Shown: piece after piece, positions 22,980-61,390 of the stretch
How the letters are laid out: the number at the start of each line of letters is the position of its first letter
Position numbering within the stretch: position 1 is the first letter of the stretch
Source: Ceratodon purpureus
Lineage: Eukaryota > Streptophyta > Bryopsida > Pseudoditrichales > Ditrichaceae
Assembly: GCA_014871385.1 (NCBI GenBank)
Contig: CM026429.1
Coordinates: 16,286,751 to 16,350,750 of the forward strand
DNA length: 64,000 bases
Direction: 5' to 3'
The notes under the pieces: model-generated
What the model was told of the DNA's origin: nothing
The model's database searches: none
Seen by the model: the letters and a program-made list of their open reading frames with translations, nothing else
Translations under genes and position numbers: made by a program

Positions 22980-25211
22980 TTAGGTGGACTCGTTCAATCT
23001 AGTGGCCTTCTCACCTTTATCGAGACCCTCCAGAGTTTCAAACATAGGCTGGTTCAAGGTCTCAGGAAGGCACAGCGACAAGGCGCTGCCCGCGATGGCC
23101 ATAACTCCGAAAATAGCGAAAGGAAGAGCCGAATGGTACCGTCCAGCGACGACCACGAACGGCGCAATAATCGATCCGATCCCCGACGCCTGAGTCGTGA
23201 AGCCAAGTGCCGCATTCCTTACCACCGTAGGAAACAGCTCCGACGTATAAATATACACTAGATTATACGTCCCAGCCATTCCAAAGATGCCCACTACGCT
23301 GCACAAAATCCTAAGCACTTTCAACACGCCAATTCCAGCGCCTGCAGAAGTAAGAAGCTGCAATCGTAGCGCTCCCCAGGAAGTCCACATATGATGACTT
23401 GTCAACCCATTTAGTGGACTATGAATTCCTTCATCCGTTTCAACAAACAAGAAGCTGCCTGCAAGGCAGCACAGACCACTCAGCATCATGGTTGATGCTA
23501 ACATGGACCTCCGACCAACTCTGTCCAGCAACACAGCCGTGATAGCAAACGCAGGCCATTCGATCATGGCGTTCAAAAACACCCCCACATACAGATTCGT
23601 CCCCAAGTTGACCACATTGAGGTTGATACCATAATACACGATGGCAGTGAGAAACCATATCACCCACATGATCAACAACCGGGACCGGGTTGCAGGATTC
23701 TTCAGCACCATGAGCAAGCTTCCAGAAGCTGCCTTCACAGTTCTAGATTCTTCTCTTGATTCTAGATCTGAAACCACCGTTTCATCCTCTTCGTTTTCGA
23801 CTTCCAAAGTGACTCCCTCGGGGATGAGGGTGCCGTTTCGTTTGGCGAAGGCACGGAGGACATCCATGGCCTCCTTGAGGCGTCCTTGGACTACAAACCA
23901 TCGTGGCGACTCGTAGACGCTGGGGAGGATGAGTGTGGAGTAGACAAGCGCTGGAAGGGAGGTAATGATGTAGAGGTGACGCCATGAGGTGGAGAAGTAA
24001 GCGAGGAGGGGCAGGGACATGATGCCGAGGGAGAAGAAGTAGAATGCGGACATGCCCACTTGACCGCGCTTGGACGGGCCGACTGGCTCGGTTGCGAGGA
24101 CGAAGCTTGAGAGGCCGATGCCAGCGGCGGTGAAGCCGGTTAACCAGCGACAGCCCACGTACACCCAGTAGTTGTTAGCTGAGGCTGTGATCAGACCTGC
24201 TAGGCCTGTGGAAGCGCAGGCTAGAAAGAGGGCTCCTTTGCGTCCTGCTCGGGAGTCTGAAAAATGGCCGAATATTCCCGCCCCTGGCAAAGAGAATTCA
24301 ACACAACATGAATATTTCAGTTTGTCCAAATTTGACTGAATCTCATACTATTGTGGTGATTCTAAGGTAAAGCTTTCATTGCATGTGGCGATTCTGAAGC
24401 AAGGGTAGGACGGGTTTCAAGGTTCCTGGAATCCATCATTGATTGGGTCCTATGCATGCCCGGATTCAACGTGGTATTCCAGGAGGGTTTAAGCTCCCTG
24501 CTGATTATAAATTATGTGCATCTTTGTGCTACTCCTGCTAGACATGCAAAAGCTATCAATATTACGTTTTACGTATAAGAGAAGACTACTTGAGGGTCAT
24601 GAGCTTACCCATAAAGGCTCCAACGAAGAATACAGCCTGAGCAAGGCCTACTTTGTATTCGTCTCCGCAGATGAGGCCCCACTCCGAGACAGTAGAGATT
24701 CCTTTTCCACCCACCCACTCCCATAAACTTGGGTTCATGGAGCAGAGAGACGATGCAGGTGTGCATGACATGTCCATCAGACCTGCACTCAGAATTTCAA
24801 GTCTAACATCGTCACAAATAGAAGTTAACACAATACAATCCTCACAAGTTTTTCAAGTGTGATATGCTTGCTGAGAAAAATGATTAGAGCGCTAGGAGTC
24901 TCACCTGTTGCGACAGATGAATTGGACACAGAATAAGGCGGGGATCCAACAAATGGTCGACATTGCCACTCTGGCTCCCGGTCAGCGAAGATCATGACGA
25001 AGGAGTGCAAGCCCTCCAGACACCACGCCAAACTGACCACGACGAAGTGAACGAGCTGAGCCAAACCGAAATCCCCCACGTACTTGGCGAGGATGTTGTC
25101 AATGGACAACCTTTCATACACACACTCCTCCACATCATTTTCATTTGGAAACTTCTCCCCGCCATTGCTAAGCAACGGTGCCTCCAAGCCTTCTGCCATT
25201 CCACCATCCAT
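22980..25211 (-). CDS. MFS organic cation/carnitine transporter (SLC22-like)
   Basis: This is a plasma-membrane or tonoplast major-facilitator carrier of the plant OCT group; its substrate cannot be read from sequence. Three exons join in frame to 594 aa: 25211-24905, 24782-24609, 24283-22980, with GT-AG introns and matching phases. The ATG at 25211 is the first after an in-frame TGA. Family marks in order: first membrane helix and large outer loop (FADREPEWQC, then NPSLWEWVGG and VSEWGLICG), MFS motif A (GHFSDSRAGRKG), YESPRWFVVQGR after helix 6, a second motif A-like LLDRVGRRSM, then GIFGMAGTYNLVYIYTSELF and the PETLNQP end. The loop before the last conserved block is about 30 residues longer than I expect (SPLNGLTSHHMWTSWG region). 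It might hide a short intron, although no splice pair there keeps the frame well. Confidence 0.9.
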
Positions 25212-32556: not shown

Positions 32557-34564
32557 GCATGCATGGAGATCTGCGGGTTTTCGTGGCAAGTGCGTTGACA
32601 GAAACTCGACAATGGACCAGGACAATGCATTGCAGTTTTGTGTTTAATCTGACTCCCTGATTGCAAAACTCCATCAGCCCTTGGAGAGGCATACATATTG
32701 GGAAGAAAAGGGAAGAAAAGTAGTGCTATTTCAAAACTGGAAACCAGGACTTGCTCTAAAATATATTTTACTCAAAGCTGACAGTAACTGTGAACAAGGT
32801 TCTATTGCCAGGCTAAACTCCCAAGTGTCGATTTCAAAATCGTTACAGCATGCTTTGACGTCATCGCAACCTATAGATTTCTTGATCGTATGAACCCAGA
32901 GACACCTCCGACGATGGGCATTAGTGGCTTCGTCGTTTCTCCTTCTTGACGGCACTTGGGGGATTCTTCGAACAAGCATCAAATATAGGTTTCAGAATGT
33001 CACTATATACATGTTTCATTCTATCCGCTTCTCCGAGCATGATACTCCGTGTACCCTTCATCTGCCCTCCTCCAGAGCTGCAAGCTCCTTGATGGCCCGG
33101 GGAAGGCATTCCCAACTGTCGACAATGCTTTTAACACCCTGCAAGACAAATCCAAATCACTGTCACACTCGGAATATCTCCAACGAGACAAATCTGATCT
33201 CTAGAAGGGACCTCTAACTCAAACCATGCCAACTTTTGACAAGCCTAACAAATTTCATGCAGACTTAGAACTTAGAGAATTTTGTGCTGACCTGATTGTT
33301 TTGGATACATTTAATAGTATCCTCAAAGCAGACCATGATACCTTGAGCAGCGGTGAAATCTAGCTCCTCGGCTTCAGGCTGCAGACCACATCTTTCACTA
33401 TTAAACCAATCAACTGATAGTAACCGGAGTTTCATGAGAGTGAATTTCAGGTATGCATACGGTTGATACTTAGTTCTACCAAAATGTGGAAGAAATAGCT
33501 AACCTTTGGGTTTTGTTGCTGTAACCAATTACTTGTAGATGCCAGGTCGTCGTACACCCACTCTCGAACTTCTTCTAATGATCCACAGTTCGCTTTATAA
33601 ACTGCAAGAAATTACAACATGACATCAAGCCAACATAGTCATTCAACTGGACGCACATTCAAATTCAGAGCACATTGTCAACATGGAGTATAACAAAGTC
33701 ATCACAAAAGAAACAGAGATAGACGTGTTACATTAATCCAGTATTATTGAGCCAGGATTCGAATAACCTACCTGGTAATCTCCACGGCCTTCCCTTGTTC
33801 ATAAGAAACCTGCAACCGGAACAAAGCAGCAGGCTTCATTAACCAGCGATCTTATCCAAATTTATGTATGTCACCTTTATATTTACTGGCTCACAATATG
33901 CAAAACTTCTACTCAAAATCTAATGCACTGATGAGATGATACGATGGGCGTGAATATACCTTTCTATGCTAACAAGTTTTCTTTGCTTGTGGCACTCTGA
34001 TATCCACTCCTGTAAGACATTCAGTAGTATATTTAGGACTCAGATCTAGATCGAACTGGGATACTATATAATGCCAAAACAACAGCATACATAAATGCTT
34101 GTCCTGTCATGCACTACAAAGCAATATATAGTGATCTAAGCATGTTCATTAAAAGAAATATAACACAATCAAAATCATAAAACGTTTCTGAATAGATTAA
34201 TGTTGAATGGAAAACTGCAAACACCTTGGACACAATGCTGCCACCATCTGCTTTGACTTGTTTAAATTTTGGGGTGTTCATGAAAGCACAAACGATGACG
34301 GTGCAATCACTTGTCCAGTCTGGACGGTATTATGCTCCCATTTCCAGCCCTTAAGTACGAAAGAGCCCTCTAGCAGGATTCTCTATTCCTGAAATTGCGG
34401 AGACAACGCCTTCCTGTAACATCGTCGAAGTTTAAAATAAATTATGTGAATAATAGTTTTAGCACAAGAGCAATACAAAGGACGGACATATCATTATTAC
34501 AAGAATAAGGGTTACTCAAAGCGGTTGCAATACCCAAATAGAGAACTGTAGAATACTCAACGAG
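32557..34564. repeat. Segmental duplication, copy 1 (of 47249-49304)
   Basis: About 2.0 kb is repeated in the same orientation at 47249-49304 with high identity in introns as well as exons, so it is a genomic duplication and not a retrocopy. The right ends stop matching at 34564 and 49304, just upstream of the BRCT exon. Differences include a 10-bp deletion at 33060/33061 and several point changes. Confidence 0.9.
32921..34413 (-). pseudogene. XRCC1: XRCC1 3'-half pseudogene (exons 4-9 only)
   Basis: This copy contains the equivalents of XRCC1 exons 4-9, starting with the BRCT exon at 34413-34225 and ending with the last exon near 33138-32921. Exons 1-3 (N-terminal domain and linker) are absent. 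Relative to the intact copy at 47613-51950, two glutamine codons of the BRCT exon have become TAA (34353-34351 and 34332-34330). A 10-bp deletion at 33060/33061 shifts the last exon into an immediate TGA, removing about 50 residues. It has no promoter of its own that I can see. Transcription as a non-coding or antisense RNA cannot be excluded. Confidence 0.9.
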
Positions 34565-35222: not shown

Positions 35223-36728
35223 TCAGTGCTCCTCCAATGTCATTACATCCGTGATACCAAGAGTGCACCGCAGGTTCTGATGGCCCATCCCGCCGTGACC
35301 CTTGCGCATCATGGACACGAACATCTTGTAGTCAATGCTGCCGTCCGCCTCAATGCTCACGTCGTGCAGAAGATCCTCCAAGGAAAGGTCCTCCATGTGA
35401 AACTCGTGGCAGACAGCGAGAAGCTCGTCGGTGGTGATATGCCCGCTGCCGTTCTTATCGAGGATGCCAAAAGCTGCCATGAGATTCTCTTCCATCTCGA
35501 TGTGGTTCAAGCTCAGCGTCGCTGCGAGAAACTCACCGTAATCGATCATACCGTCATGGTCGACATCAGCTGCCTCCATAAGGTCAAAAATCTCGGCCTC
35601 CTTCAGAGAAGTCCCCGCCCTCAGCAGTCCTGCTTTGAGCTCCTCGAAGTTGATGGCGCCGTCGTTGTCGCTGTCCAACTCGGTGAATATCTCCTTCAGA
35701 TTCGCAATCTCCTCCTCCGAGAGTGTCTCTGCGATGATCCGAATCGCCAGCTTCTTGACCTTGTTCAGCGCTGCAAACTGCTTCATCCTAAACTGGACCA
35801 AGGATGCAATTGGTTTACAGGGCGCCACACCGTCCTCACGAATCCACGGGTGCTTCAGAACCTCGTGCGCTTTCAGTCGCTTCTTGGGATCAGGGTTTAG
35901 CATCTTCCGAATTAGGTCCTTGGCCCCCTCGGAAATGTTCGGCCACGGGTCCGCGCTGAAGCTAACCGGCTCTGCTTTCATCACTTTCTCGAAAATCCCT
36001 TGAATACTCTCGGAATAATACGGAGGATATCCACAGAGGAAGATATACAACATCACGCCCGCGCTCCATATATCGACTTCTGGCCCGTAATGTCGATCCA
36101 AAACCTCGGGGGCAACGTAGTAAGGACTTCCAACGATCTCCGTAAACACATCCCCCGGCTCATAAAACCGAGCGGAGCCGAAATCGGCCGCCTTCAACAC
36201 AGAGTCGTTGTCCTTCGTCTTAAACAAGAAATTCTCCGGCTTCAAATCGCGATGCACAACGCCTGATTTGTGGCATGTTTCCACAACACGCACGATCGTC
36301 CTCGTCAAATGCGCGGCCTCCGCTTCGGTATACGTCCCCCGCTCGATGATGCGGTCGAAAAGCTCCCCGCCCTCGCAAAGCTCCATTACGAGATACACCG
36401 CGTCATCGTCCATGTACGTGCCCTTGAGAGTAACAATGTTTGGATCCCCGGAGAGGTGGCACATCACTTCGACTTCACGCCCGACGTCCTCGATCTCCTC
36501 CGGGGAGATGAGCTTCCGCTTCGGAATGCGTTTGCACGCGTATTGCAATCCCGTTGCTAGCTCCGTGCACAGGTAGGTCGTGCCAAATTGGCCCTCGCCG
36601 AGCTTCTGCCCGAGGGAGTAGCTTTTCTCCAAGTCTTCACAAGCATTTTGTAGCAAAGGAAACTGCTCCTGATAGCCGATCGAAAACTGCTCCTGAGAGC
36701 CAATCGAAAACTGCTCGACGTCCGCCAT
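35223..36728 (-). CDS. Calcium-dependent protein kinase (CDPK), intronless
   Basis: This is a Ser/Thr kinase activated by its own calmodulin-like domain. A single uninterrupted frame of 501 aa runs from the first ATG (36728) after an in-frame TGA. Kinase domain is about 37-295, with GEGQFG, catalytic Lys66 (YACK), HRDLKPEN (Asp161), DFG (182-184) and SPYYVAPEV. The autoinhibitory junction is about 296-335. EF-hands 1-3 have intact loops (D352-E363, D388-E399, D424-E435). The fourth (458-469) has Ser at position 1 and Met at position 12, so it probably binds calcium poorly. Residue 2 is Ala, so there is no N-myristoylation site. The N-terminus is instead a short repeat (EQFSIGSQ, EQFSIGYQ, EQFPLLQ). 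The DFG segment reads AADFGSARF where plant CDPKs usually have TDFGLS. An intronless CDPK is unusual and could reflect an old retrocopy; no stop or frameshift suggests decay. Confidence 0.94.
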   Translation of the reverse strand: MADVEQFSIGSQEQFSIGYQEQFPLLQNACEDLEKSYSLGQKLGEGQFGTTYLCTELATGLQYACKRIPKRKLISPEEIEDVGREVEVMCHLSGDPNIVTLKGTYMDDDAVYLVMELCEGGELFDRIIERGTYTEAEAAHLTRTIVRVVETCHKSGVVHRDLKPENFLFKTKDNDSVLKAADFGSARFYEPGDVFTEIVGSPYYVAPEVLDRHYGPEVDIWSAGVMLYIFLCGYPPYYSESIQGIFEKVMKAEPVSFSADPWPNISEGAKDLIRKMLNPDPKKRLKAHEVLKHPWIREDGVAPCKPIASLVQFRMKQFAALNKVKKLAIRIIAETLSEEEIANLKEIFTELDSDNDGAINFEELKAGLLRAGTSLKEAEIFDLMEAADVDHDGMIDYGEFLAATLSLNHIEMEENLMAAFGILDKNGSGHITTDELLAVCHEFHMEDLSLEDLLHDVSIEADGSIDYKMFVSMMRKGHGGMGHQNLRCTLGITDVMTLEEH

Positions 36729-39203
36729 AGCCGCTACTTCGAAATACGAACAGCCTCTCCTCTCAAGACCTACAAGCAAACCTACAACAATCCATGTCAA
36801 TACACTTCACCTAACAACGGCATTATCAAATCAAACGCACTTCATTAACTTCACTCAATAGACTCACAATTTGCAATGAAAGGCACGTCGTCGAATCAGC
36901 TTGCTCACGGGTCGCCGGTATTCGACTTCCACACAGCCATAACTGAAATAGTCTCCACAGAAGCTATATACTCACTGGCGGCTTCAAAAAATGCTCCAGC
37001 CTCCACCGGTAAGCTCCTCAAGGTCCAAAGTCTTCGCCAGTGAGCTTAAGAAACTTATTCATCTCGGAAGTAACGCTTCAACAACAGAAATAGAACACAA
37101 CAACGACCTTCACATACACACGGCAGAAAGAATGCCTTGGGTAACTGGCACAACAACCTGCATCGAGACGAAACCCTCACACACTCCAACACAACTGCCA
37201 CAGCACTAAAAGTGCAACTCAAGTCTAGTTTTCCCTCAATCTGCTCACTCCACAATCACTCAAATGCAAGAATACAGCGATGCGGCAGATCTAAACATAG
37301 ATCGAACTTAGTCGGAGCTGCAAAACGGAAAACGAAAGGACTGAAGCTAGGAAGCTGGAGGAGTAGAGGAATGGTGCAAGTGCAGGGGAGGGCGGCAGAA
37401 CCCAGTTTTGACAGTCCAGAGAGATTCCCCTATGGCCGCGCTTCCCATTGGTCATGGGTGGATAGCGCCCCGATACCGTGATCTTAAACAGTCACATTCT
37501 GTGGACCACGGTACTGTATGTCAAACTTTTACGCTCAGCCTGCCTGTATTCTACTCAAAGTCAAAACTGGCCACTGGCGATCGTTCATAGAAGTAAGTTT
37601 AGAGCTTCAGTCTTTCTTCCCAAAACTGGCATATTCTTGAAGATGCCAGAAGGACATTTCTTCTTGTAGCATTTATTTTGCAAAGTGCAATATATGGTAG
37701 AAGTGAATGTAGAGGGTATTGGATATTTGGATAGGTGTTTGTAAAGTCACTTATGTTATTTTTTTTGTAGATGTGAAAATGACGTATTTTTTAAGGACGT
37801 TGTATTTTCGTAAGGAATCTCTTTTTGTATTGATGAGAGTTTGGCTAGAGTTGGAAAAATTATAAAATAAGCTTGTTGGAAAATGTTATGGTTGACAATG
37901 TTTGAATGTGATATTTTTTTTTTAATTATCTAAAGAGGAATGAAAACATGTCATGTATGTGGTCATGACAAGTTGACCAATCAAGTAGATGACCAACCAT
38001 CAAACTTGACCAATAAAACTTTGTGAGCCACTCACAAAGCTTATAATCTATCTTTTTTGTTTTGAAGTCTTGTAAGTGATGTAGCAAAAAATGGAAGTCA
38101 TTAAGGAGACTCTTGAACAATAAATTGTTTTTATTGAGTTGTAATTGTTGGAGGTAAAAAACTACTTTAACCTTAAACGAAAGTAAGGAGACAAGTTTGG
38201 ATTAACTCACATTCCAATATTAATATGAACAAAAAAATTTCGAGTCTCATACCCAAAGGTTGCCATCCATTTAGAGCATCTTCAGCCATGCAATTTGAAG
38301 TACCCTTGCTCGATAGATAGAAGTGGCTCTTGTTTGAAAATTTTGGAAGCTTCACATTTGTCAACCATGCACTATAATAACTACTTGAGAATTAACTTGG
38401 GTTACTTCCAAAGAAGGTCTTGGAAGCTCTTGGATATTCTTGGAAACTCCACGAAGCTCTTAGAAGCTCGTAGAAACTACTCAGAGGTTCTTAAAGTCCT
38501 TAGGTGATAAAAATTTATAGAAACCTAGTAGTAATAGTCACTATAAATAGTTGAAGGCAACCTCACTCTTTGATAACGCATTTGTTAAAGCTTTAATCCA
38601 TACTTTATGGTGTTATTTGTCTACTTGATGAGTTTATTCGAGTTCTTTTCAGTTTCATCTCAAGTCTCTCATGTAATCCAAAGTTTGCTTGTGTTTTTGT
38701 TTTGTTCCTAAGAGCATCCCTTATGGTCTTTTTCTTAACCGCCCTACAACGCCCAGTTGGCGACTTGGTTGGTGAGGCGCTGATAACACGGGGTGGATTT
38801 AGGGCCGAGAAAAAGGGAGCATTGCACAAATAATATGCAGTGAGTTGTAAGCCGGTAGTGTGCGTGGTGGCGTACATTTTCCAAACTAGCACATATATCT
38901 CCTCATTACGAGAGGATCACAAATACAAATATTTGTCTTTCCCGCATCAAAGGTTGTCATGTTAACTTGACCTCTTACTACTGACTAGAATATGCATTAA
39001 TAATAATTTCTCTCACCAAAAACATTTAACATGGCGTGATGAGGAGTGGGATGGCAACCTTCCACCGCTTGGCAAGGGCAAAGCGCGAGGCGTTGGAGCG
39101 CCTCTTCGAAACCTGACCCACCAAGCACAGTTGGCGGGTCAATCGTATGCTCCCATAACCTTTGCATATCAAATACCTAGTTTACATTTCTAAAAGTTTA
39201 AAA
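36729..39203. other. CDPK upstream region and intergenic DNA
   Basis: The first several hundred bases likely hold the CDPK promoter and leader (minus strand). From about 37600 the DNA is AT-rich without coding signal. A GC-richer patch at 39050-39140 has no clear frame. Confidence 0.4.
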
Positions 39204-40134: not shown

Positions 40135-40330
40135 GAAATAAGATAATCAGTAAAGTGCACAACAACTACTAGAATGTTGGAAAGTTTTTAGAGAAAGATA
40201 ATAAAATAATTGATTTTGGCTCTTTGATATGAAAATAGGGCAAGTCAAAACTTGATGAGATACAACCACATTGTTTCAAGAAGTGTTTTGGACAAGATTG
40301 ATCAACCTTTTACTCTACTTGAGGAGGTAA

Positions 40331-40590
40331 ATTTCAGAAATATAGAGGGAGTGTGGGTGGATCTTTCCATTTTTAAGCAAGATTTGGTGTACTCCCTCTA
40401 ATGGATTGTGGTGTTTTCAATGGGACATTTCACCTTTGTCAAATTTTTACAATTTTTTTTTACGTGAGAAATATCTCACGTTTATTTTAATGCGCTTCTA
40501 ATGATGGTAATTTCAATGTCTAATTTTAGGTCAGTCAAAAGATAGATTTGGTTTAGAGGGAGGCTTCATTGTGTACGATTGGGGATGCTC
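40331..40590. mobile_element. Partial copy of the foldback MITE of 52557-62242
   Basis: The right terminal sequence ends GATTGGGGATGCTC followed by TTA. The interior matches the split MITE at 52.6-62.2 kb (TAGAGGGAGTGTGGGTGGA, TTTGACTGACC complement, GGTAATTTCAATG). The left arm is missing, so only about half of the palindrome remains. Confidence 0.75.
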
Positions 40591-41868
40591 TTAGTAGTCC
40601 CACCATTAGTGTCATGACCTCTATGCATGCATTCAACGATAGGTTGGAAGGGCACTCTATTCACGCCGGCCGCAAAGCTTCTCTTCGTCTTGGATCATGT
40701 GAAGTTTAAAGTTTTTATTTTTATTTTATTTTTAAAAGACATGTGGAAAGAATGGATGGAGGTACTCTTGAAGGCGGCTCAGTAATTTTTAATTCTTACA
40801 AGGGCGGTTTTGGGTCCCAGCACCTTACAAGTACGAAAAAACCTAATGAGTGTAGATGCCAGCTATCATTTTGGGGGCCCAAATTTGTGGCTGCTGGCAC
40901 ATCCTATCCAAACTGGGCCAACAAGAAGGTTATATCCAGCTGGTTATATTCGTGCGCAGCTGTGTACATGTGTCAACCAATTGAAAGCTCTCTCAAACAG
41001 TATCTATTAAAAAACGATTAAAAAGAACTTAAAATGTAGTTATGAGTACCTTTTAGGAATCTCTGACCAGTCGGTTAATCTCACATACCGGTATATGCCT
41101 CATGTCGCATTGGAATATGCAATTTCACTCGTGAAAGCATGAACAATGTGAATTCCATTTGGCGTCTTGGGAGGAAGTTCAAAAATCTTTTTGAAGACGA
41201 CTCATTTCAATCAAAATTCAAATCCATATTTGTGGGTCCCAAGTAGGGCCGTTTTTCGTTTTCTCCACTGATTCACTCCATGGGCTAAACAATAAGGTAG
41301 AAGCACCTATGACCGATAACTTAAGGATTTTAGCATAGTAAATCTTAGGTTTTCAATAAGGATTTATTTTTTGTGCGTAGTATCATAAGGTTCATGAAGA
41401 ATGAGCATTTTTCCAAAATTAATTCAGTAAAATTCAAATTACTACAAATTTCTTGTCCAAAAGTGGCACTGATCCATGACTGACATATAGGTGTACCAAT
41501 GCCCGACAACAACAAGAGTAGTGAACAACATGTCCATAACACTCACAGAGGCATTCTATTGGAGGATGCATCTTAAATCTATTGTTCATCAATTATCGGT
41601 TATTGGTTTTCTATTGCTCTGCAATGGGGAAGCCTACATATCAGTCATGGGGTAGGTAACCGTCATGGGTGCTTCTACCTTATCAATGCATGCTTCAGAT
41701 TTTACAAGGTCTTCATTAGTTTAGAGATACCAAGAAGAAGATAAATAGATAAGAACTCCAATCTTCAAATCGAAGAATGGCGTGAATATAGTGTCCGTTC
41801 GTAATGTCTTTACCTCGATGGCCACAAGACAAAGTGGTAAAAGAATAGAACTACTCACCCCTTCACTA
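40591..41868. other. Gene-free stretch
   Basis: Short open frames at 40743-41021 overlap in two frames without recognisable features. Nothing further is supported. Confidence 0.4.
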
Positions 41869-47248: not shown

Positions 47249-49304
47249 GCAATGCATGGAGATCCCGCAGCTTTGTGGCAAGTGCGTTGGCAGAAACTCG
47301 ACAATGGACCAGGACAATGCATTGCAGTTTTGTATTTAAACTGACTCCCTGATTGCAAAACTTCTTCAGCCCTTGGAGAGGCAAACATATTGGGAAAAAA
47401 GGGAAGAAAAGTAGTGCTATCTCAAAACTGGAAACCAGGAGTTCCTCTAAAATATATTTTACTCAAAGCTGACAGTGACTGTGAACAAGAATCTATTGCT
47501 CAGGCTCAATTCCCAAGTGTCGATTTCAAAATCGTTACAGCATGCTTTGACGTCATCGCAACCTATAGAGTTCTTGATCGAATGAACCCAGAGACACCTC
47601 CGACGATGGGCATTAGTGGCTTCGTCGTTTCTCCTTCTTGATGGCACTTGGGGGATTCTTCGAACAAGCATCAAATATAGGTTTCAGAATGTCACTATAT
47701 ACATGTTTCATTCTATCCGCTTCGCCGAGCATGATACTCCGTGTACCCTTCATGTATCCTCCTCTGCCCTCCTCCAGAGCTGCAAGCTCCTTGATGGCCC
47801 GGGGAAGGCATTCCCAACTGTCGACAATGCTTTTAACACCCTGCAAAACAAACCCAAATGACTGTCACACTCGGAATATCTCCAACGAGACAAATCTGAT
47901 CTCTAGAAGGGACCTCTAACTCAAACCATGCCAACTTTTGACAAGCCTAACAAATTTCATGCAGACTTAGAACTTACAGAATTTTGTGCTGACCTGATTG
48001 TTTTGGATACACTTAATAGTATCCTCAAAGCAGACCATGATACCTTGAGCAGCGGTGAAATCTAGCTCCTCGGCTTCAGGCTGCAGACCACATCTTTCAC
48101 TATTAAACCAATCAACTGATAGTAACCAGAGTTTCATGAGAGTGAATTTCAGGTATGCATACGGTTGATACTTAGTTCTACCAAAATGTGGAAGAAATAG
48201 CTAACCTTTGGGTTTTGTTGCTGTAACCAATTACTTGTAGATGCCAGGTCGTCGTACACCCACTCTCGAACTTCTTCTAATGATCCACAGTTCGCTTTAT
48301 GAACTGCAAGAAATTACAACATGACATCAAGCCAACAAAGTCATTCAACTGGACGCACATTCAAATTCAGAGCACATTGTCAACATGGAGTATAACAAAG
48401 TCATCACAAAAGAAACAGAGATAGACGTGTTACATTAATCCAGTATTATTGAGCCAGGATTCGAATAACCTACCTGGTAATCTCCACGGCCTTCCCTTGT
48501 TCATAAGAAACCTGCAACCGGAACAAAGCAGCAGGCTTCATTAACCAGCGATCTTATCCAACTTTATGTATGTCACCTTTATATTTACTGGCTCACAATA
48601 TGCAAAACTTCTACTCAAAATTTAATGCACTGATGAGATGATACGATGGGCGTGAATATACCTCTCTATGCTAACAAGTTTTCTTTGCTTGTGGCACTCT
48701 GATATCCACTCCTGTAAGGAATTCAGTAGTATATTTAGGACTCAGGTCTAGACCGAACTGAGATACTATATAATGCCAAAACAACAGCATACATAAATGC
48801 TTGTCCTGTCATGCACTACAAGGCAATATATAGTGATCTAAGCATATTTATAAAAAGAAATATAACACAAATCAAAACATTAAGCTGAAACTTCTAACTC
48901 TGGCAAACGTTTCTGAACAAGAGCTACTGATGATAGATCCATGTTGAATGGAAAACTGCAAACACCTTGGACACAATGCTGCCACCATCTTCTTTGACTT
49001 GTTTAAATTTTGGGGTGTTCATGAAAGCACAAACAAGGACGGTGCAATCACTTGTCCAGTCTGGACGGTATTGTGCTCCCATTTCCAGCCCTTGAGTACG
49101 AAAGAGTCCTCTAGCAGGATTCTCTATCCCTGAAATTGCGAAGACAACGCCTTCCTGTAACATCGTCACAGTTTAAAATAAATTATGTGAGTTATAGTTT
49201 TAGCACAAGTACAATACAAAGAACGGACATATCATTAGAACAAGAATAAGGCTTACTCAAAGCGGTTGCAATACCCAAACAGAGAACTGTAGAATACTCA
49301 ACGA
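47249..49304. repeat. Segmental duplication, copy 2 (source side)
   Basis: This is the counterpart of 32557-34564. It contains the intact XRCC1 exons 4-9 and about 360 bp of 3' flank. Since it lies inside the complete gene, it is the likely parent. Confidence 0.9.
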
Positions 49305-51950
49305 ACACGCACTACACAACCAGAACCTTAACAGAACTTCACACATGAAGATGAGTTCTCGAAATGGATCTATATCAGGTGCAGGCATCTTTTACACTGT
49401 CTACCTCCCAAATCACAAGCTCTCACAACACCACAAAACTGCCAATATACACACTACTTCTCCTGCAATATGCACAATCCGCAAGCAATGCTACGTTACT
49501 ATTCATGGTCGTACCAGAATTTTTGCAAAGTCGTCTGCTGCGGTTGTTTTCTTAGAACTAGAACCAATTGGACCTTCCTTCCCCAATTCATCTGCCGAGC
49601 GTAATTTAGTATGGGGAGGCGCTTGTGCTGCTACAACACGTCTTTTGGCATATTCTGACTTTCCTACTTCTTGAGCCGCATTGAACCCAATATCAACATT
49701 TTCGGGTTTTCCAATTTTCGAATTCTTCGTAGATGCTTTTGGAGCTTCTCGAGACCTATCCTGTGGGCAGGGAGAAGGCTGGGCATCATCTATGCATTTG
49801 GTTACCTTCGAACCAACCACTACCTGCTCTTCTACGTCCTTCTCAACCTTAGGTTTCCTAATCCCAGCAGTTTCCTTCCGGTCTGGGCTCCGGTTTCTGC
49901 TTTTCGTCTTCGACGCATTGCTATCTTTTCTATGTAATGGTGAGCAATCCAGTTGAGGTGCATGGTTATGCATATCAGTTGTCGCTGTCTCCAAACCGAT
50001 CACTAACTTTGGTTTTACGACCTTCTTGATATTGGGCTCTTTAATTACCCGCAAACCATCCTCTCCGTCCTCTTTCATAACCTTCTGATTACTAGACGTC
50101 CTTTTGCCATCAGTTCCCTTCCGATCTGGGCTCCGGTTTCTGCCTTCCAGCTTGGACACGCTGCCATCCATCCCGGAAATTCGAGAGCTTTCTACTCGAA
50201 GGGCATAGTCCTGTGGTTCAGGCTTTACATTTGGTTTCTGGTATTCGGGTCTTGTAGCGTTTTGCTGCACATTTTGTTTTGGCTTCTTCTGATGTTTCTC
50301 TTCGTGCCTGTCAGTGTCGCATGGCATAACTCCGGAAGGCAACTTTCTTTTTGCTACCGCACTAGAGCTTTTTCCTGCGCTATCAATGTCCTTCTTGCTC
50401 TTAGACACCTCAGAACTTCTAGGTTTGCACGTTGTGAAATTGATGTAAGACAGACCTATACAAGCACGGTGCTCAACTGTGCCAAAGGGTTGGCGACAAA
50501 TTAATCGTAACTTTCTCCACCTGAAAAAAGCAGCAAGTTTGCCACCTTAGAATGTATCTCCTATGGTTGCAGGACATAACTTGCACCTTCGTCTACAATC
50601 GCTTACCACACTCATGTTGAGTGAAAATCCGCGACCCTTAAAAAAGTGATGCTCAGCCAGTTTTCAAGAACGCGAACTACAACGCTCCTTCCACTTTCCA
50701 TCTACATATGATCTTTAACAACTTCCTCGTGAAGACTGGCATTGCAGTACTCTCCAACTCTTCTTCTTGTGGGACTTTCGACGATCGTGATGTAGAGAAC
50801 AATTTCTTACCGCTGCTGGGCTGCAACGGGTGAGAGCTTGTGATTAACATCAATGTCGTACACCAACGCTCGATTCCGATTGACCTTGCTCACCAGATCT
50901 TTCACTGTCATGACCTGGCAGCTCAATCAACCACCACAACTGTTACTCTTCGAATCAAAACATATTTAACTTTACCTTGATTGCCCACTACATACCTCCC
51001 CGGATCAGTAAAGTAAGCAGGTCAACCAAGTACTAGAATACTGATACACCTGGTCATCTATCTCTCATCTTCAAAGCCATTTAATCTGAACAGCAAGACA
51101 AGCCTTCTATAATAACATCTCGTTCATCCATTCAACGAGTTTCAAGAAACTCGCAATCACTGCAAACAGTATCACAGTACAAGCACTGTATCCTTACAGC
51201 ATTGCAAATCCCTTTCATACATAACAAGCATAACACAAACCTGGCTTAGCACCTTCAATCCCTGAAAGCAGTACCCCAATTGAGACACTAAATTGCATAT
51301 CACAGCATAACCAACACACACAAACAACACCTTGTCCCATCTAGACCCTTAATACAGCAAGACAAGTCTCACCAAAGCCTAGTCAAGACCTAGTCCATTC
51401 AGCCGATCCCAACATACCAACGAGCAGCAGACGCAACAACGCAAGACGCATGTCGCCCGCATTGCAAACCTCTCCCCGAGCCAAATTCACCACACCTAAA
51501 CCTCAACCACAAACCCTAACCAGAGCCACAACAACATCGAACCACGACACAGACACCAACTTCCCAAGCTAACAGAGCAGACTCCACATCCAAGAAACAA
51601 GAAACGGCTCCATTCTAGACACACCAGTCCGCCGACGAACCCACCTGTTGCGGCGACAACAGCAGCTCATAATCACCACCACCACCAGCACCGTCGCGCA
51701 GTCCGTGAATCTCCACTAGAGAGGACCCCGCATTGACGATCTCGACGGCGCGAAACGAAGTCGGCGGAGTGGGCTCGACGACGAGCCAGGCCTCCTCGCA
51801 GGGCTGTCCAGTCTGCCAGACGCGGTACCGCTCCGGCTTGAGCACATTGGTGGCCGCGTGGACGTCGGCCTCCGAGGAGCCGTCCGTGACGCGCCATCGC
51901 ACCGGCGCTAGCTCCTCCTCGTCGTCGTCCTCGTCCGCCTTCCCTGCCAT
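47613..51950 (-). CDS. XRCC1: XRCC1 homologue with N-terminal and BRCT domains, 9 exons
   Basis: XRCC1 is a scaffold for base-excision and single-strand-break repair in the nucleus. Nine minus-strand exons join in frame to 701 aa: 51950-51645, 50914-50811, 50520-49515, 49154-48966, 48711-48662, 48511-48474, 48303-48206, 48080-47994, 47840-47613. All introns are GT-AG and phases match. Residues about 15-180 look like XRCC1_N: NVLKPERYRVW, FRAVEIVNAGSSLVEIHG, GDYELLLSP, then WRKLRLICRQPFG and GLSYINF, in the order found in animal XRCC1. A long basic, disordered linker follows (exon 3). The BRCT domain is about 473-564 (GVVFAISGIENPARG, YRPDWTSDCTVLVCAF, GGSIVSKEWISEC, KGRPWR). The C-terminal tail (LEEVREWVYDDL, DSWECLPRAIKELA) matches plant XRCC1 as I remember it. 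Only one BRCT is present, as in other plants. The ATG at 51950 is the first in frame after a stop. Confidence 0.93.
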
Positions 51951-52553: not shown

Positions 52554-52902
52554 TAAGAGCATCCCCAATAGCACACTATAATGCCTCCCTCTAAACCAAA
52601 TCTATCTTTTGACTGACCTAAAATTAGACAATGAAATTACCATCATTAGAAGTGCATTAAAATAAACGTGAGATATTTCTTAAGAAAAAAAAATTGTAAA
52701 AATTTGACAAAGGTGAAATGTCCCATTGAAAATTCCACATTTTCAAATTTTAGAGGGAGTACACCAAATCTTGCTTAAAAATGGAAAGATCCACCCACAC
52801 TCCCTCTATATTTCAGAAAATGTAGAGGGAGTGTGGGTGGATCTTTCCATTTTTAAGCAAGATTTGGTGTACTCCCTCTAAATTTTGAATATGTGGTATT
52901 TT

Positions 52903-53602: not shown

Positions 53603-56600
53603 TCATCCTCGGGAGCGTCGGTAGGCGGGGCGTCGATCTGGTCGCGTTTCCTCGCGGGGTACCTGCCCTTGGCGTCGAGGGGGAGCTTGGTCCTGATACA
53701 GTGTGGCTATGGCGGCAGCGACTCCTCGGTGGAGTAAGTTGTGTTTTGACCTAGAGGTCACTGCGTGCTGGTACACATCGTAAACTGTCTTCCCCAGGAG
53801 CCTGTTACAGGCAAGGCATTGCACATTTTCTGACTCGGGATTCCCATAGATGGAGACCAGATCAGCCTGAGCAACAAAATACTTCTTGACTTCACTCACA
53901 GCAGTTTCTAGTTCCTCTTCGGCCTCACTCTCATCACTGGCTTCTACCTCTAGGCTAAACTCCTCTTCAATCTTTTTTAGTGCATCTTTGTGATTTTTAA
54001 TAGGTTGAGAGCGAATGTGTACCGTAGGGCGAGGCGGGCTTGGAGGAGCTGGGGCTGTGATTGGCATACGTGGTGACGGCTGTGGAGTGATCTCAGTGTC
54101 CGTCAGTGAGTCCGGAATGTCGACTCGCTCTGCCGGGTTGGCTTGGTCGAGAATCACGGGGGCTCGGGTATGCAGCGTTGGAAGCTGTACCACGGGATTC
54201 ACCAATAGAGGTGCTGCAGCATCCGGAGCTACCAGTAAGGTCTCACGAGGCGGGGTGTCGAGGAGATCCAGATCCATGGTTTCCCAGTCTGGGTCAGTGT
54301 CTCCACCATCCAAGGTTGCCAGTGCCTGATCGATACATTGGTCAATAAAGTCTTGCGGTGGCTCTGGGGCAGTCGGTGGCGACCCTTGGAGAATACGATA
54401 TGCATGGATGGCGATGGTGCGGGCCGCATCGTGGATCCAGCCAATCTTGTTTGCTTCAAAGGTCTCCCTCGCCTGCTCTGTAGCCATGCGCTCCTGCTGG
54501 ATGCGGGCGATTTCTTGAGCAGTTGGCGGAACCCGGCCGGAACTACCAAGCTTCCGAGTTAGGGCTTCGTGCGCCTCTGTCAACTCCTTGCAACGTGCAC
54601 GAAACTCAAGGATTTGATGCTCCAGTCGCTCTGCTCGTTCCAGAACCCCTTGTTTCTCCTTGGTAAGCATGTCTACCTGTTCCTGGGTCGTTGCGAGCTC
54701 CAAGTCTTGATTAGCAACTCGGTTCCTCAAATTAGCAAGTGTCTGGTTTGCCTCTTCCAACTGCTGTTGAAGCTCGTTCCTTGCTGTTTCGACTTGTGCT
54801 TGTGCCTTGGCTTGGGCTGCTTGGACGGCTAGGCTCAATTGGCGTTGCTGAATGTCCTTCCTGGTCTCCATGTCCTGTTCCGCCCCACTGATGAACTGTA
54901 GCATGTTTGTCATGCAGGTGACCATGGCCTGGACTTGGGCCTGGAATTGTACCGTCCGCGGTCCCTCGTGAATTGTAGCTGGGATTGTCGGTGGCAGGGT
55001 CAACTCCGCGTGTCTTGGGCGTTTGCTTGGGCCAGGGGCTGAAGGATCGGGCTGTGGCCTGGCGGCGAGCTCCTTCTGTACGTCAAGGAACGTTCCCATA
55101 ACCGGGGGCTGGTTGTTGCGGCGCGTAAAAGCCAGGTAGTGCGCAATGTATGCAGTTAGGAATGGGCCAATCGGGCTGGAGTACTCCAAGCTGCGACGGT
55201 GTCCCCGAAGCCGGATGCGAAAATGCTCATCTACCAAAAGTCCCCAGTTTATCTTCTCACCCTGATCCGCCATGAGCAGGATGCACAATTGCTCGGGGGT
55301 GATCCCATTGCAATTGTTCTGGAAGTACACCTGACTGAGGATACCACGCATCCGAGCAAACCAGGGATCCTTCATAACTTCACCCAATGCAAAGACATCA
55401 TACCTGCCATTGTCCTTCACCTGTTCGTCCTTGACATGGGAGGCGAGGTCGGGTTTTGGAAACTTGCAGTCTGCGCTCCACTCGGTGGCTCCAGTACCAT
55501 CCCAGCCGAAGAACTTATGTAAGTATCGGCTGGAGTACTGGACCAGTATCCCCTCCACGACTCCTGCGGGGTGCGGCTCGTCTTCTCGGTGCTCCCTCAT
55601 GGATGCGAGAAAGGCTTGGCAGTGCGCGATGTTGACCTCCCCCTTCATCAAGGAGCAGTACCGATGGAGCCCCGTCTTCGTTTGCCATATGAGATCGGGC
55701 CGTCGCTTCCATTCGATGATCTGTCGCGGAACAAAGATGGGCGGCTGCGGTTTTTTAGGCGACATACTAACTGAGACACTCTCTACTGACTGCAGGAAGA
55801 GATGGAGCAGAATCCGCACCCACGGGGCGAGGAAATGGAGAGGCGGAGATGCGTAGGGATGTGGGAGACAGGGGGCAGGGAAGCTGGAGCAGCGCAACAG
55901 CGTGTGCGCGGAGATGAAGAGCAGGGGGCAGCACGACACCAAGTTTCCAAGACACTGGGGGAAGGGAGGTGGGGGGCCTGAGGAAGAAGAAGGAGAGGAG
56001 GCCAAGGGCTGTGGGGGCGGAGAAGTGACCCGGGGTTTTGGATGGAGACAGCCCGATGGCTTTTTGGTGGGCTGGGAATCATGGAGAGCTAGCGAGGATG
56101 GTGGCGGCCTAGGCCCCATGATTCGGGATGTCTTGAGTACTGGGGGTGTCATGTCGTGCTGAGTTGTAGGGGACTTCAGCTGAACGTGGATATAACTAAC
56201 ATGTATTTCGGGTATGGTGGGTGTGGGGGCAGGGTCCATGGTCTCCAAGGTGGGCGTGGTATCTTGAGCCTCGGCTGCCAAGGACTTGTGGAGATCACCT
56301 AGGCGCATAGCTGGAGCTGGGGCAGGGTCCGAGGTGAAATAATGCTTGAGTTTGTTTGCATTTACCATGGTTGCGTGAGGGTCATAATTTTCATTATTAA
56401 TTAATAACACAGTATTATTTGGAAGTACCAATTGTATTCTATATGGCCCGTGCCAAATAGATTCGAACTTGGATTTTCTTAGCTTAGGATCCCTTGGACA
56501 CCAAAGAACCTGGTCACCTTTCTGGAACAATCTTGGTGGTTGTTTTGCTTGGAAATATTTAGCACTGAGGGCCTGTTTTGCAGTAATGTTTTGGATGGCT

Positions 56601-59600
56601 TGGGCTCTGATTTCTTCCAAGTGGTGTATGTCCTGTATCCGGGCGGCCAGAACTTTGTGGGGTGTATAGTCTCGAGTTTGTAGAGAGCTGAAAGTGGGTG
56701 CAATATATTCCGTGGGTAACAAGGGTTGGGTACCATAAACCATTTCAAATGGGCTGAGCTGCGTGGATGTTTTGGTGGCTACTCTATATGCCCACAGAGC
56801 TGCTGGTAGGCAGTCATCCCAGTCTGCCTGGTTAGCGTGCACGAATCTTCGTAGCATGTTAATGATGGTCTTGTTGGTAGATTCGGCTTGGCCATTACCC
56901 TGGGGATAGTATACGGTACTTGTCCTATGTTTGATAATGTGGTTATTGAGCAGATCCTCTATCACGGCATTAACAAAATGGGATCCTTGGTCCGAGACGA
57001 TTTCCAAGGGGCATCCAAATCTAGTAATGATATTCTCATAAATAAAAGTAGCTGTAACGACAGCAGTGTTATTTCTCAATGGCTTGGCTTCGACCCATTT
57101 TGTGGTATAGTCCGTGGCTGCTAATATATATTTGTATCCCTGTTTGGTAGCAGGGCGGATAGGTCCCACAAAATCCAAGCCCCAACGCTGAAAGGGACCC
57201 AGGGGAGAAATTGGTTTCAAGGGAACCTTGCCTTGGTGTTGAAAATTGGTAGTCGAAACTTGGCATGGGTGGCAATTTTTTACATAGGTATGCACATCTC
57301 TATGTAATGTAGGCCACCAATACTTGGCTAGTAGAATTTTCTTGATGGTTGTCTCGGTCCCTTGGTGACCCCCTGCCGGACCATGGTGTAAGTGGTGAAT
57401 GATTTCCTGCTGCTGAGCTGTCGGCACACATAGTCGAATTTCCTGATCTGCCCCCCTTCTGTACAGTTGTCCTTGGATGAGGGTGTAGGGTAGTGTAGTT
57501 CTCACGAAACTAATTCGCTTGGTTCCCGTGTACTTGGCAGGGACTGTGCCTGTGCTAAGGTACATCATAATATCTGAGTGCCAATCGTCAGGGAAATCAG
57601 GAACCAGGCTGGCTGCTTGGAGGTAGGGTTCGTTGAAGGAATCGTCAATGCCTTCCTCGGTTGCCTTGGAGTCCCTGGAAAGGTAATCAGCCATGACATG
57701 TCTTTTTCCTGGGACATAGACTACCTCAAAATCATATTCCAAGAGAATCATGATCCATCTGGCCACTCGCCCTGTGACCAAGGGCTGGTTTACTAAATAT
57801 GATAAACTATGGTGATCTACCATGAAGCGAAATTTGTTACCTAAAAGGTAATGCCGGAACTTTTTGACAGCGTAGATCATAGCCAAGGCTTCCCTTTCTG
57901 TAGTGGAATAGTTACGTTCTGCTTGATTTAACAATCTACTAGCATATGCTACTGGTTGGTCATTTTTTCCATTGATATTTTGTGCTAACATAACGCCTAC
58001 TGCGATGTTAGACGCATCCGTGTGAACATGGAACGGCTTGGACCAGTCCGGTGCGATTAATATTGGAGCGTTGGAGTAAGCCAGTTTGATTTTTTCCAAG
58101 GCTTCCTGGGCAGCTGGGGTCCAATCCCTGGGATATGTATACTTGGTGTGATTCAAGGCTGTGATGGGAGCCGTGATGTGGGCCAATTTTTCAATGTAGA
58201 TCCTATTAAACTGGGAGAGTCCTAGGAGTCTTTGTACCCCCTTTTGATCAGTGGGAGGAGTCATGTCCAAGATATCCTTGATTTTTGCAGGGTCGGGGAG
58301 TTTTCCATATTTGCAGACAATGTATCCCAGGATAACCCCAGCGAAGAACAAGAACATACATTTATCTGCATTGAGGCTTACTCCATTGGTTCTGCAGGCG
58401 TGGAATATTTGTCTTAGATGCATAACATGGTCTTTCATCTGGCCATAGACTGTTCCATCGTCTAGATAGATTCTGAAAAATTGTTTCAAGTATGGTCTGA
58501 AGATAAGCTCCATGACACGCTGAAATGTCATGGGTGCGTTTTTAGCGCCAAAAGGCATTCTCTCAAATTGATAGGGTCCCCATTCCGTGGAGAACGCGGT
58601 TTTGTTTTTGTCATGTTCGGCCATGGCTACTTGGTAGTATCCCGAGAAACAATCCAAAAAAGAGTACATTTCATGGCCGGCCACTTCATCTATAATTTCT
58701 TCCATATAGGGTAAGGGGTAGTGGTCTTTCTTGGTTGCTGCATTCAGTTTCCGAAAATCCACACAAATACGGAGTGTGCCATTTTTCTTGGGTATGATGA
58801 CCATGGGAGACAACCAAGGAGCCGAGTCTACCGGGGATATGAAATTCGCTTTTAAAAGTTTATCCAATTCTGCTTTGACTCGTTCTGCATAGTTTGGATT
58901 CATTCGATACCGACGTTGCTGCACTGGTATGGCGTCTGGGACTAAATCGATAGTATGTTCAGCCAAGGTACGTGGGATACCCTTAAGATCCTCGTGTCCC
59001 CATGCAAATATATCATGGTATTCATGGAACAACTTGATAGTTTCCTGTTTGATCTGACTTGGGGCATCCGCATTAATTTTGAGGAACTTGGGGTTTTCCG
59101 CTGTTCCCAGATTTACCAGTTCCACTTTATCCTTGGATCCATGTGTCCATCCAGTAATTACCTTGGTTTGTAAGGCTTCCTTGGCTGGTGTCGCATCGAT
59201 GGTGACGGTTTCCTGCGTTTCCTGGGAAAAATGGGCTGGTATGTCCAGTTTTTCCTGTTCCGTGACCAAGCTTGCCAAGTGAATTTCTGCCAAGGAGACC
59301 AAGTCTGGGTTGGCATGGAATACTAGTGCTTCTTGATCCTGCGATAATCCCTGGACCCAGCTTGTACCTGCATTATGACGTATCTGATCGGCTCTAGCTC
59401 TGGTTATGCATCCATCTACTGGGATGACTACGGTTTTTCCTTGCCTATGGATACGGATTTGGTTGCGGGACCAATCGTGGATAGCATTCATGTCTCTGAG
59501 CCATGGTCTTCCCAGAATGACTGGAAAATTACTGCTATTTGGCATCTCTATAATGACAAACGTGGCTGGGGTCGAGACTCCGTGAGTAGTGATAGCGACC

Positions 59601-61339
59601 GTGGATAGTATCCCTAGTGGAGTGACTGGAGCATCATTGGCCATTCTTAGGATAAACTGGGCGGTCTTGGGAGGTGGTAAACCTAGTTGCTTGCGTAAAT
59701 GGTTACTCATTACGTTTACTCCTGATCCCCCATCTACCAGGACATTAGTGAGTTCGTGATTTCCTAGTTGAAGGTGGATTACTGCTGCATCCGGGTCAAG
59801 TGTGGTGGCATTGACTTCAACCACTGCTGGATCGACACTCGTACTAGGTAATGTGGCTTGCTGTAAATATTTTTGGAGCTCAGGGCTGATTTGGATCAAC
59901 TTGGATAATGTAATGGTAACATTAGTGGCATCTAATACTGCTTGCATACCGGGGTCCTTGGTTGACTGTTCTAACCCTCTTTGTAAATCTGTTCTAATTT
60001 CATGCAATCGGTCCCAGTGGCCTTCAGGGAATGGTTTTCGATGTTCCACCACGTGGTCTACCAAGGGAGCCTTGGAGCGGGTACTGACCACGGCGGTACT
60101 AATTGTGGATACGTTTGTTTCAGGACCATGGACTTCCGTGAGCGTCACACCCCCCCTTCGGGGCAGGTTATTATTCCTAGGGCCAGGGGTTGTCGTAGTT
60201 CCTTGGTTATTCGATGGTGGTCGATATTGGGCCCAGCGCTGCCTAACTAGGGGGCATTGGCTCCGATGGTGTTCAAGGGAGCCACATTCCCAACAGGCGT
60301 CACCACGCCCTGGTTGGAATGCATCCACGTTGACCTCGTCTGGGTACATTGCGGCTGCAGTAGCTCTAGGACGTCGATTTTCATCCACTCGGGAATTCCC
60401 AGGGGCGAACCAGCAACGGCCTGGGTGTATTTTGCCACATGTATTGCATGGTTGGGCCGTGGTTTTGGGCTCTGCTCGGTAGGCTGGGAGTGGTAACAAG
60501 GGTGCTTGGTTTTTGTTTAGGACCTCTAGTTCTCGGCTAATGTCATTAGCAGCGGTGAGGATGTCATTTAGTGTCTTGACTCCTCGAATGACAATTCCTT
60601 GCTGTATCCAAGGTAATAGCCCCTTTTTGAACCATTCACACAAATAATCTTCCTCTGGCCTTTGGTTCAGTTTGTCCGCCAATTGTTTAAATCTGTCGTA
60701 AAACTTATCGACTGGTTCATTGCGGTCCTGAGTTATGGTTCCTAGGGCTCTCAAGATTTCTGAACTTGTCTTGAGTTTTCGGAATTTCTGCAAGAAGCTT
60801 CGCTCCATGTCATCCCAGGTTGCGTGGGCGTGGTCTGTCTCAAAATCAATGTACCAATTAATATGGTTTCCTTGGAGTGTTGTGCCAAATATATTTTGTA
60901 AATCTGCAGTATTAGACACCCCGTTTGTGCGAGCAATAACTTTAAAACGGCGGATGTGCCAATCCGGGTCACCTGATTCATCAAATACAGGGTATGGGAT
61001 TTTGGGAAACTTGGCATGTCTCTCTAGGTCACCACCGCTGAGAGATGTAGCAGCGGTGTGGTTTTCTTGGAGAAGTGTAGGGGATCTACTAGCTTCCAAG
61101 GCGTTCCCAGATGTTTGGGGGGGTATGTTATTTACCCCTTGTGTTCTACTGTTTTGGAGATTCTGGTATTGGAGGCTGAGCATCTCTAACTTGGCATTCG
61201 TGGCATCATTTTTGGCAACCAAGTCAGTCATTTGTTGTTTCATCCATTGTAGGAAATCCTTTGTGGGGTCAGGGTCGTCTTGTTGTGCAGTTTCTTCTGC
61301 ATCATTGTTTCTGTCTGCGGCAACTTTTCGTGGCGGCAT
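53603..61339 (-). CDS. Gag-Pol polyprotein with large C-terminal extension
   Basis: One ORF of 2578 codons starts at the ATG at 61339. Gag is about 105-275 ([15 protein letters not shown]). A zinc knuckle C-x2-C-x4-H-x4-C is at 349-362 ([14 protein letters not shown]), preceded by [12 protein letters not shown]. The protease active site is about 536 ([12 protein letters not shown]). Reverse transcriptase is about 810-1000, with [19 protein letters not shown] and YLDD at 958-961. RNase H is about 1100-1222 (VHTDAS, then VMADYLSR). Integrase has an H-H-C-C region ([10 protein letters not shown] to NCHPCQ) and D-D-E residues in [15 protein letters not shown] and GQAEST. After about 1670 come a Pro/Ser-rich linker, then from Met1859 roughly 720 residues I cannot assign: a folded-looking part (about 1865-2080), a coiled coil (about 2150-2265), an acidic segment, and a C-x2-C-x13-H-x7-H finger (2508-2533) before an Arg-rich end. 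The extension may be a separate ORF fused in frame. Confidence 0.97.
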
Positions 61340-61390
61340 GGTGTTATCCTAGGATTTAAATATGTTTTTTCCAAACACTCAACACGCCAT

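What the first reader, a model, noticed from the sequence alone, without database searches (positions are those of the whole stretch)
47613..51950. Plant XRCC1 that keeps the XRCC1 N-terminal domain
Angiosperm XRCC1 (Arabidopsis, rice) is known for a single BRCT and no N-terminal domain. Here exons 1-3 encode a full XRCC1_N-like region (NVLKPERYRVW, VEIVNAGSSLVEIHG, LRLICRQPFG, GLSYINF) joined in phase to a plant-type BRCT and tail. In animals this domain binds DNA polymerase beta. Its retention in a seed-free plant implies loss in the angiosperm line and raises the question of its partner in plants.
Basis: partly seen in the sequence, partly recalled or inferred. Interest (0 to 1): 0.75.

Follow-up and report, generated by a model that had tools for sequence, protein, structure and literature searches.

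The report
Moss XRCC1 retaining its N-terminal domain
This moss gene encodes the DNA-break-repair scaffold XRCC1 with the front domain that animals use to hold a repair polymerase, a domain reported as missing from the Arabidopsis protein, so when plants lost it and what it binds in a plant become testable questions.

Summary
On the minus strand, 51950 to 47613, nine GT/AG exons join in frame into a 701-residue protein. Residues 21-165 match Pfam XRCC1_N (E 1.6e-22, profile positions 9-148 of 148), followed by one BRCT. The domain's only significant matches among solved structures are XRCC1 N-terminal domains (48 of 140 aligned residues identical); the BRCT's best match is human XRCC1 BRCT1. 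Exon 3 alone encodes the domain's end and the linker up to the BRCT, so a two-transcript artefact is very unlikely. A diverged second copy on contig C8 keeps the domains and exon phases. The N-terminal domain is 62% identical between copies, against 71% for the BRCT and 24% for the linker.

Reviews say Arabidopsis XRCC1 lacks this domain. My searches listed no report of it in plants. Loss in angiosperms is parsimony, untested here. PAR-pocket residues are conserved. Pol-beta-contact residues F67 and V86 are only conservatively kept, and C12/C20 (recalled redox pair) are absent. No X-family polymerase was found in this genome, by searches that lacked a positive control, so the partner stays open. 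A broken BRCT-and-tail duplicate lies at 32.6-34.6 kb.

The parts
51645..51950 (-). exon 1: start codon, acidic leader, first ~57% of the XRCC1_N domain (residues 1-102)
   Evidence: in-frame ATG, GT donor; Pfam and PDB alignments cover it
50811..50914 (-). exon 2: XRCC1_N domain, residues 103-137 (last codon split)
   Evidence: AG acceptor, GT donor; same length and phase in the C8 copy
49515..50520 (-). exon 3: end of XRCC1_N (WRKLRLICRQPFG...GLSYINF, to about 50436), then a poorly conserved linker up to the BRCT boundary
   Evidence: one open frame of 347 aa holds both the domain's C-terminal part and the linker
48966..49154 (-). exon 4: core of the BRCT (BRCT1-type), with PAR-pocket residues equivalent to S328, R335 and K369
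48662..48711 (-). exon 5: BRCT continued
48474..48511 (-). exon 6: end of BRCT region (RFLMNKGRPWRLP)
48206..48303 (-). exon 7: C-terminal tail
   Evidence: conserved with the C8 copy; no Pfam match for the tail up to E 0.1
47994..48080 (-). exon 8: C-terminal tail
47613..47840 (-). exon 9: C-terminal tail and stop codon
32559..34563 (-). partial tandem duplicate of 47252-49304 (exons 4-9 and 3' flank, no N-terminal domain), with two in-frame stops in the BRCT exon and a disrupted last exon: pseudogene
   Evidence: 94.2% DNA identity over 2056 columns, sequence read

Best explanation
This is the XRCC1 single-strand-break and base-excision repair scaffold of a moss, most likely Ceratodon purpureus, keeping the order N-terminal domain, linker, BRCT1, with a tail where animals have a second BRCT. 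Most likely mechanism: the BRCT docks on poly(ADP-ribose) at a break, the linker tethers, and the N-terminal domain holds a repair factor over the gap. I think the most likely factor is an X-family polymerase (Pol lambda, the only X-family member reported for higher plants), bound through the same face that holds Pol beta in animals but without the redox switch. Shown here: identity, gene structure, domain content, conservation in two paralogues, conservation of pocket residues. Inferred: PAR recruitment, polymerase binding, ancestral retention.
For: Gene model and domains. Only XRCC1 N-terminal-domain chains match the domain significantly in the PDB, and human XRCC1 BRCT1 is by far the best match for the BRCT (9.6e-30 against 4.6e-11 for the next; 47 of 90 residues identical). 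The paralogue on C8 has nine exons with the same phases and both domains. Between the paralogues 93 of 149 N-domain residues are identical (pN 0.23, pS 0.75), BRCT 66 of 93 (pN 0.16, pS 0.68), linker 51 of 217 (pN 0.55, pS 0.84); the bootstrap ranges of pN/pS for N domain (0.23-0.41) and BRCT (0.15-0.34) overlap and lie below the linker's (0.56-0.76). [quoted passage not shown] The strands that carry the pocket positions are largely kept. Papers report no Pol beta in plants, and Pol lambda as the only X-family polymerase of higher plants (PMC6728418 and PMC10787897 passages).
Against: Human Pol lambda is reported to bind XRCC1 mainly through its own BRCT and the central region of XRCC1, although the form lacking that BRCT still bound, about 15-fold more weakly (PMC11241748 passages). 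The segment of human Pol lambda aligned with the Pol beta V303 loop is different. The pocket residues F67 and V86 are substituted, and R109 (role recalled) becomes L or F. No X-family polymerase turned up in this genome in six answered searches, which had no positive control there. Retention against regain was not tested with other plants. No expression data.
Confidence: 0.65

Rival explanations
1. The N-terminal domain is kept for direct binding of nicked or gapped DNA, not for a polymerase; flowering plants lost it because BRCT and tail took over DNA contact.
For: [quoted passage not shown] The polymerase-pocket residues are substituted and the recalled redox cysteines absent. No Pol beta reported in plants.
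Against: A later study cited in PMC3546746 suggests that Pol beta binding to the oxidised domain excludes its contact with gapped DNA (passage), so DNA binding may be secondary. The hydrophobic character of both pocket positions is kept in both paralogues.
Confidence: 0.25
2. Mosses keep a Pol-beta-like polymerase that the N-terminal domain binds as in animals.
For: The domain is well kept in two paralogues; the exon-by-exon searches here had no positive control and cannot exclude a polymerase.
Against: Papers state that plants have no Pol beta, though I saw no statement that mosses were examined. None of six answered searches found one.
Confidence: 0.06
3. Gene-model artefact: the N-terminal exons belong to a different gene from the BRCT exons.
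For: No RNA evidence was available here.
Against: Exon 3 alone is an open frame running from the end of the domain through the linker to the BRCT boundary; all splice signals are canonical; the C8 copy has the same phases throughout and the same lengths for exons 2, 4, 5, 6 and 8.
Confidence: 0.02
4. Not exclusive of the above: the domain is not rare in plants. It is present in many land plants and charophytes and lost only in angiosperms or parts of them, so the finding is ordinary and simply unremarked.
For: XRCC1 is inferred to have emerged in early eukaryotes (PMC3969565 passage), so presence in non-seed plants is what one would expect. The statements of absence that I saw are about Arabidopsis; rice is recalled.
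Against: None of the listings that I saw names it, in a library of open-licence papers only.
Confidence: 0.5

Closest known systems
Animal XRCC1 (PDB 1xna, 3k77, 3k75/3lqc for the N-terminal domain, 2d8m for BRCT1)
   Same: N-terminal domain over nearly its full length, linker, BRCT1 with identical PAR-pocket residues
   Different: no second BRCT found by Pfam, a conserved tail instead; C12 and C20 absent; F67 and V86 replaced by L/V and L
Arabidopsis XRCC1 (At1g80420), and rice XRCC1
   Same: no second BRCT, as described for plant XRCC1 in PMC6728418 and for Arabidopsis in PMC10573277 (passages)
   Different: the Arabidopsis protein is described as lacking the N-terminal domain that is present here; for rice this is recalled. 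I had no angiosperm sequence to align, so a shared tail is assumed, not tested
Paralogous XRCC1 on contig C8 of the same genome
   Same: nine exons, all phases, N-terminal domain, BRCT, tail
   Different: 612 aa; 62% identity in the N domain; linker 24% identical over aligned codons; its 3' end is uncertain

Membership tests
XRCC1 | XRCC1_N domain (PF01834) at the N-terminus | tested here: met
   1.6e-22, 80.6 bits, profile 9-148/148
XRCC1 | central BRCT of the XRCC1 BRCT1 type | tested here: met
   best of 10 PDB sequences matched is human XRCC1 BRCT1, 9.6e-30; next 4.6e-11
XRCC1 | PAR-binding pocket residues S328, R335, K369 | tested here: met
   identical in both copies; numbering set with a recalled human sequence, which has S, R and K at these positions as PMC4538820 states
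Animal-type XRCC1 | second, C-terminal BRCT that binds DNA ligase III | tested here: not met
   Pfam finds one BRCT region only and nothing in the tail
Animal-type XRCC1 | C12-C20 redox disulfide of the N-terminal domain (recalled) | tested here: not met
   G24/A32 in this copy, V/S in the C8 copy
Animal-type XRCC1 | Pol beta pocket F67 and V86 | tested here: inconclusive
   L78 and L96 here, V and L in C8: hydrophobic but changed
Animal-type XRCC1 | binding of a DNA polymerase by the N-terminal domain | not testable with these tools
   needs protein; the genome searches for partners gave nothing and had no positive control
Plant-type XRCC1 as described for Arabidopsis | no N-terminal domain, no second BRCT | tested here: not met
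   second BRCT absent as described, but N-terminal domain present

The most novel reading that the evidence does not exclude
In mosses, and perhaps all seed-free plants, XRCC1 still has a working N-terminal docking domain that was rewired from Pol beta to another partner (Pol lambda or a plant-specific factor) after plants lost Pol beta, and was then discarded in the seed-plant or flowering-plant line.
Probability: 0.35. Interest if true: 0.65.

Novelty: new variant of a known kind. Interest (0 to 1): 0.42.

Why it matters
Reviews describe Arabidopsis XRCC1 as lacking the domain that in mammals recruits the gap-filling polymerase, and note that plants have no Pol beta and no ligase III. A land plant that keeps the domain in two conserved copies shows that the Arabidopsis description does not hold for all plants. 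It separates loss of the domain from loss of Pol beta, and offers a moss system (targeted deletion is routine in Physcomitrella, recalled) in which a function of the domain other than Pol beta binding can be isolated.

Tried and rejected
Three further PF01834 matches on C6 (27.3-27.7 bits, over the Pfam cut-off) were rejected: the two of three that I translated are AT-rich and broken by six stops each; the third has the same number of stops in the table.

Pol X partner search in the own genome. Palm PF14792: none at E 0.001. Thumb PF14791: one match at 15.6 bits, E 3.4, below the cut-off, whose surrounding open frames gave me no sign of a polymerase by eye. PF10391: three matches at 17.1-18.6 bits, E 0.67-1.8, below the cut-off. 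tblastn with human Pol lambda on all ten loci fetched around these four places gave one 20-residue alignment at E 0.44, which I take as chance. HHH_8 PF14716: none at E 10. Human Pol lambda core: none. A recalled plant Pol lambda fragment: none. As plants are reported to have Pol lambda, I take this as insensitivity to short exons and draw no conclusion about presence or absence. I had no positive control in this genome for Pol X; the same kind of search did find one exon of each XRCC1 copy.

Shared neighbours of the C8 and C9 copies: tblastn of 607 window open frames (45 aa or more) against 150 kb of C8 gave 28 rows. Apart from XRCC1 itself and its broken duplicate there were a 39% match to the kinase and scattered short matches; no clear colinearity. 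Origin of the duplicates is undecided.

Structure: AlphaFold2 on exon 1 alone (a partial domain, no alignment) gave mean pLDDT 61.9, too poor to use. Fold search did not complete.

Short motif scan of the window protein for PIP, APIM and RIR patterns (recalled forms): none.

A search for BRCT-and-tail relatives elsewhere in the genome did not complete, so further XRCC1 copies without the N-terminal domain are not excluded.

Full report
What is there. The gene lies on the minus strand. From ATG at 51950 to the stop ending at 47613, nine exons (306, 104, 1006, 189, 50, 38, 98, 87 and 228 nt) join in frame to a 701-residue protein; all eight introns are GT..AG. Pfam finds XRCC1_N over residues 21-165 at 1.6e-22, covering profile positions 9-148 of 148, and a BRCT around residues 470-541. 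Against solved structures the first 170 residues match only XRCC1 N-terminal-domain chains significantly (3k77, 1xna, 3k75; 3.8e-16 to 5.9e-16; two further matches are at E 0.27 and 0.29). The BRCT matches human XRCC1 BRCT1 at 9.6e-30; the other nine of ten sequences listed are BRCTs of other proteins at 4.6e-11 or weaker. Over the printed alignment, 48 of 140 aligned residues of the N-terminal domain are identical to the animal protein.

Is it one gene? Exon 3 lies in a single open frame that starts with the end of the N-terminal domain and runs through the linker to the residues before the BRCT, so domain and BRCT side are joined by coding sequence, not only by a splice guess. A second gene on contig C8 (14319864-14323572, minus strand) shows nine exons with the same phases: 288, 104, 754, 189, 50, 38, 113, 87 and 216 nt; exons 2, 4, 5, 6 and 8 have the same length as here. 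Its protein has XRCC1_N at 6.7e-21 and a BRCT at 1.6e-9. Its 3' end is uncertain, since a splice signal overlaps the stop codon I used.

Is it under selection? Between the two copies, amino-acid identity over aligned codons is 93 of 149 in the N-terminal domain, 66 of 93 in the BRCT region, 66 of 134 in the tail and 51 of 217 in the linker. The proportion of nonsynonymous differences is 0.23, 0.16, 0.31 and 0.55, while synonymous differences are near saturation throughout (0.68-0.84) (codons opposite gaps were left out). Within the domain the exon-1 part is the least conserved (48 of 85) and the exon-3 part the most (22 of 29). The N-terminal domain has been held nearly as tightly as the BRCT over a long time. 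This is a comparison of two sequences only, by simple counting, without a model of saturation.

Host. The assembly has 362,488,568 bases with one 110.5-Mb contig, about 30% of the total. A review says the UV sex chromosomes of Ceratodon purpureus make up about 30% of the genome, but lists 349.5 and 358 Mb for the two assemblies (PMC13120521 passages), so the size does not match that table exactly. The window carries MIR533, a moss family by recall. I take the host as Ceratodon purpureus, probably the male isolate GG1; this rests partly on recall.

Mechanism. [quoted passage not shown] All three residues are identical in both moss copies. The N-terminal domain of animal XRCC1 holds Pol beta through a pocket spanning F67 and V86 (PMC6614843 passages). 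These positions are L and L here and V and L in the C8 copy; the neighbouring G64, S65, E69, D83, Y84, E85, L87 and L88 are identical in all three proteins, while C12 and C20, the redox pair by recall, are absent. Papers report that plants lack Pol beta and that Pol lambda is the only X-family polymerase of higher plants (PMC6728418, PMC10787897 passages). I therefore favour a moss scaffold recruited by poly(ADP-ribose) whose N-terminal domain holds a repair factor, most likely an X-family polymerase. Against this, human Pol lambda is reported to bind XRCC1 mainly by way of its own BRCT (PMC11241748 passages; the form without it still bound, about 15-fold more weakly), and the segment of human Pol lambda aligned with the Pol beta V303 loop is different. 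Direct DNA binding by the domain is the main rival.

Partner search. Six answered searches of the genome for X-family polymerase pieces gave nothing convincing. The search is exon by exon and I had no positive control for this family in this genome; I conclude nothing about Pol beta or Pol lambda here.

What is known. [quoted passage not shown] Eight literature searches bear on the domain in plants: 7 papers; 26; 11; 1; 5; 4; 12 listed of 37; 5. No title or opening lines of an abstract in these listings concern the N-terminal domain in plants. I opened eight of these papers for passages only (PMC6728418, PMC10573277, PMC3969565, PMC6614843, PMC3546746, PMC11241748, PMC10787897, PMC8258418) and none of the rest; the library holds open-licence papers only. 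Public protein databases may well carry the domain annotation already; I could not check. The view that XRCC1 emerged in early eukaryotes (PMC3969565 passage) makes retention unsurprising and loss in angiosperms the derived event, but no other plant was compared.

Verdict. It is a useful correction and a good experimental handle, rather than a surprise of kind.

Noticed in passing
window 32559-34563: A 94.2% identical partial tandem copy of the 3' half of XRCC1 (BRCT and tail exons), without the N-terminal domain and with stops in the BRCT exon: a fairly recent pseudogene.
   Followed up: yes
window 53603-61348, minus: One 2581-residue open frame with gag, reverse transcriptase, RNase H and integrase domains of a Ty3-type retrotransposon, about 1.6 kb upstream of the XRCC1 start.
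   Followed up: partly
window 20592-20708, plus: MIR533 microRNA precursor (87.7 bits against a cut-off of 80).
   Followed up: no
window 35223-36806, minus: One open frame with a protein kinase domain and EF hands (calcium-dependent protein kinase type), next to the broken XRCC1 duplicate.
   Followed up: no
window 22980-24347, minus: One open frame of the sugar-transporter (MFS) family.
   Followed up: no
window 52554-52902 and 40328-40593: A repeat shared by the XRCC1 upstream region and the 40-kb region: 92.5% over 267 columns inverted and 89.6% over 96 columns direct. Looks like a small dispersed element with a hairpin layout.
   Followed up: no
L006:2520-2885 (C8 copy, minus strand): The stop codon used for the C8 gene overlaps a GTAAGT donor-like signal, and an acidic open stretch follows downstream; the C8 protein may have one more exon.
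   Followed up: no
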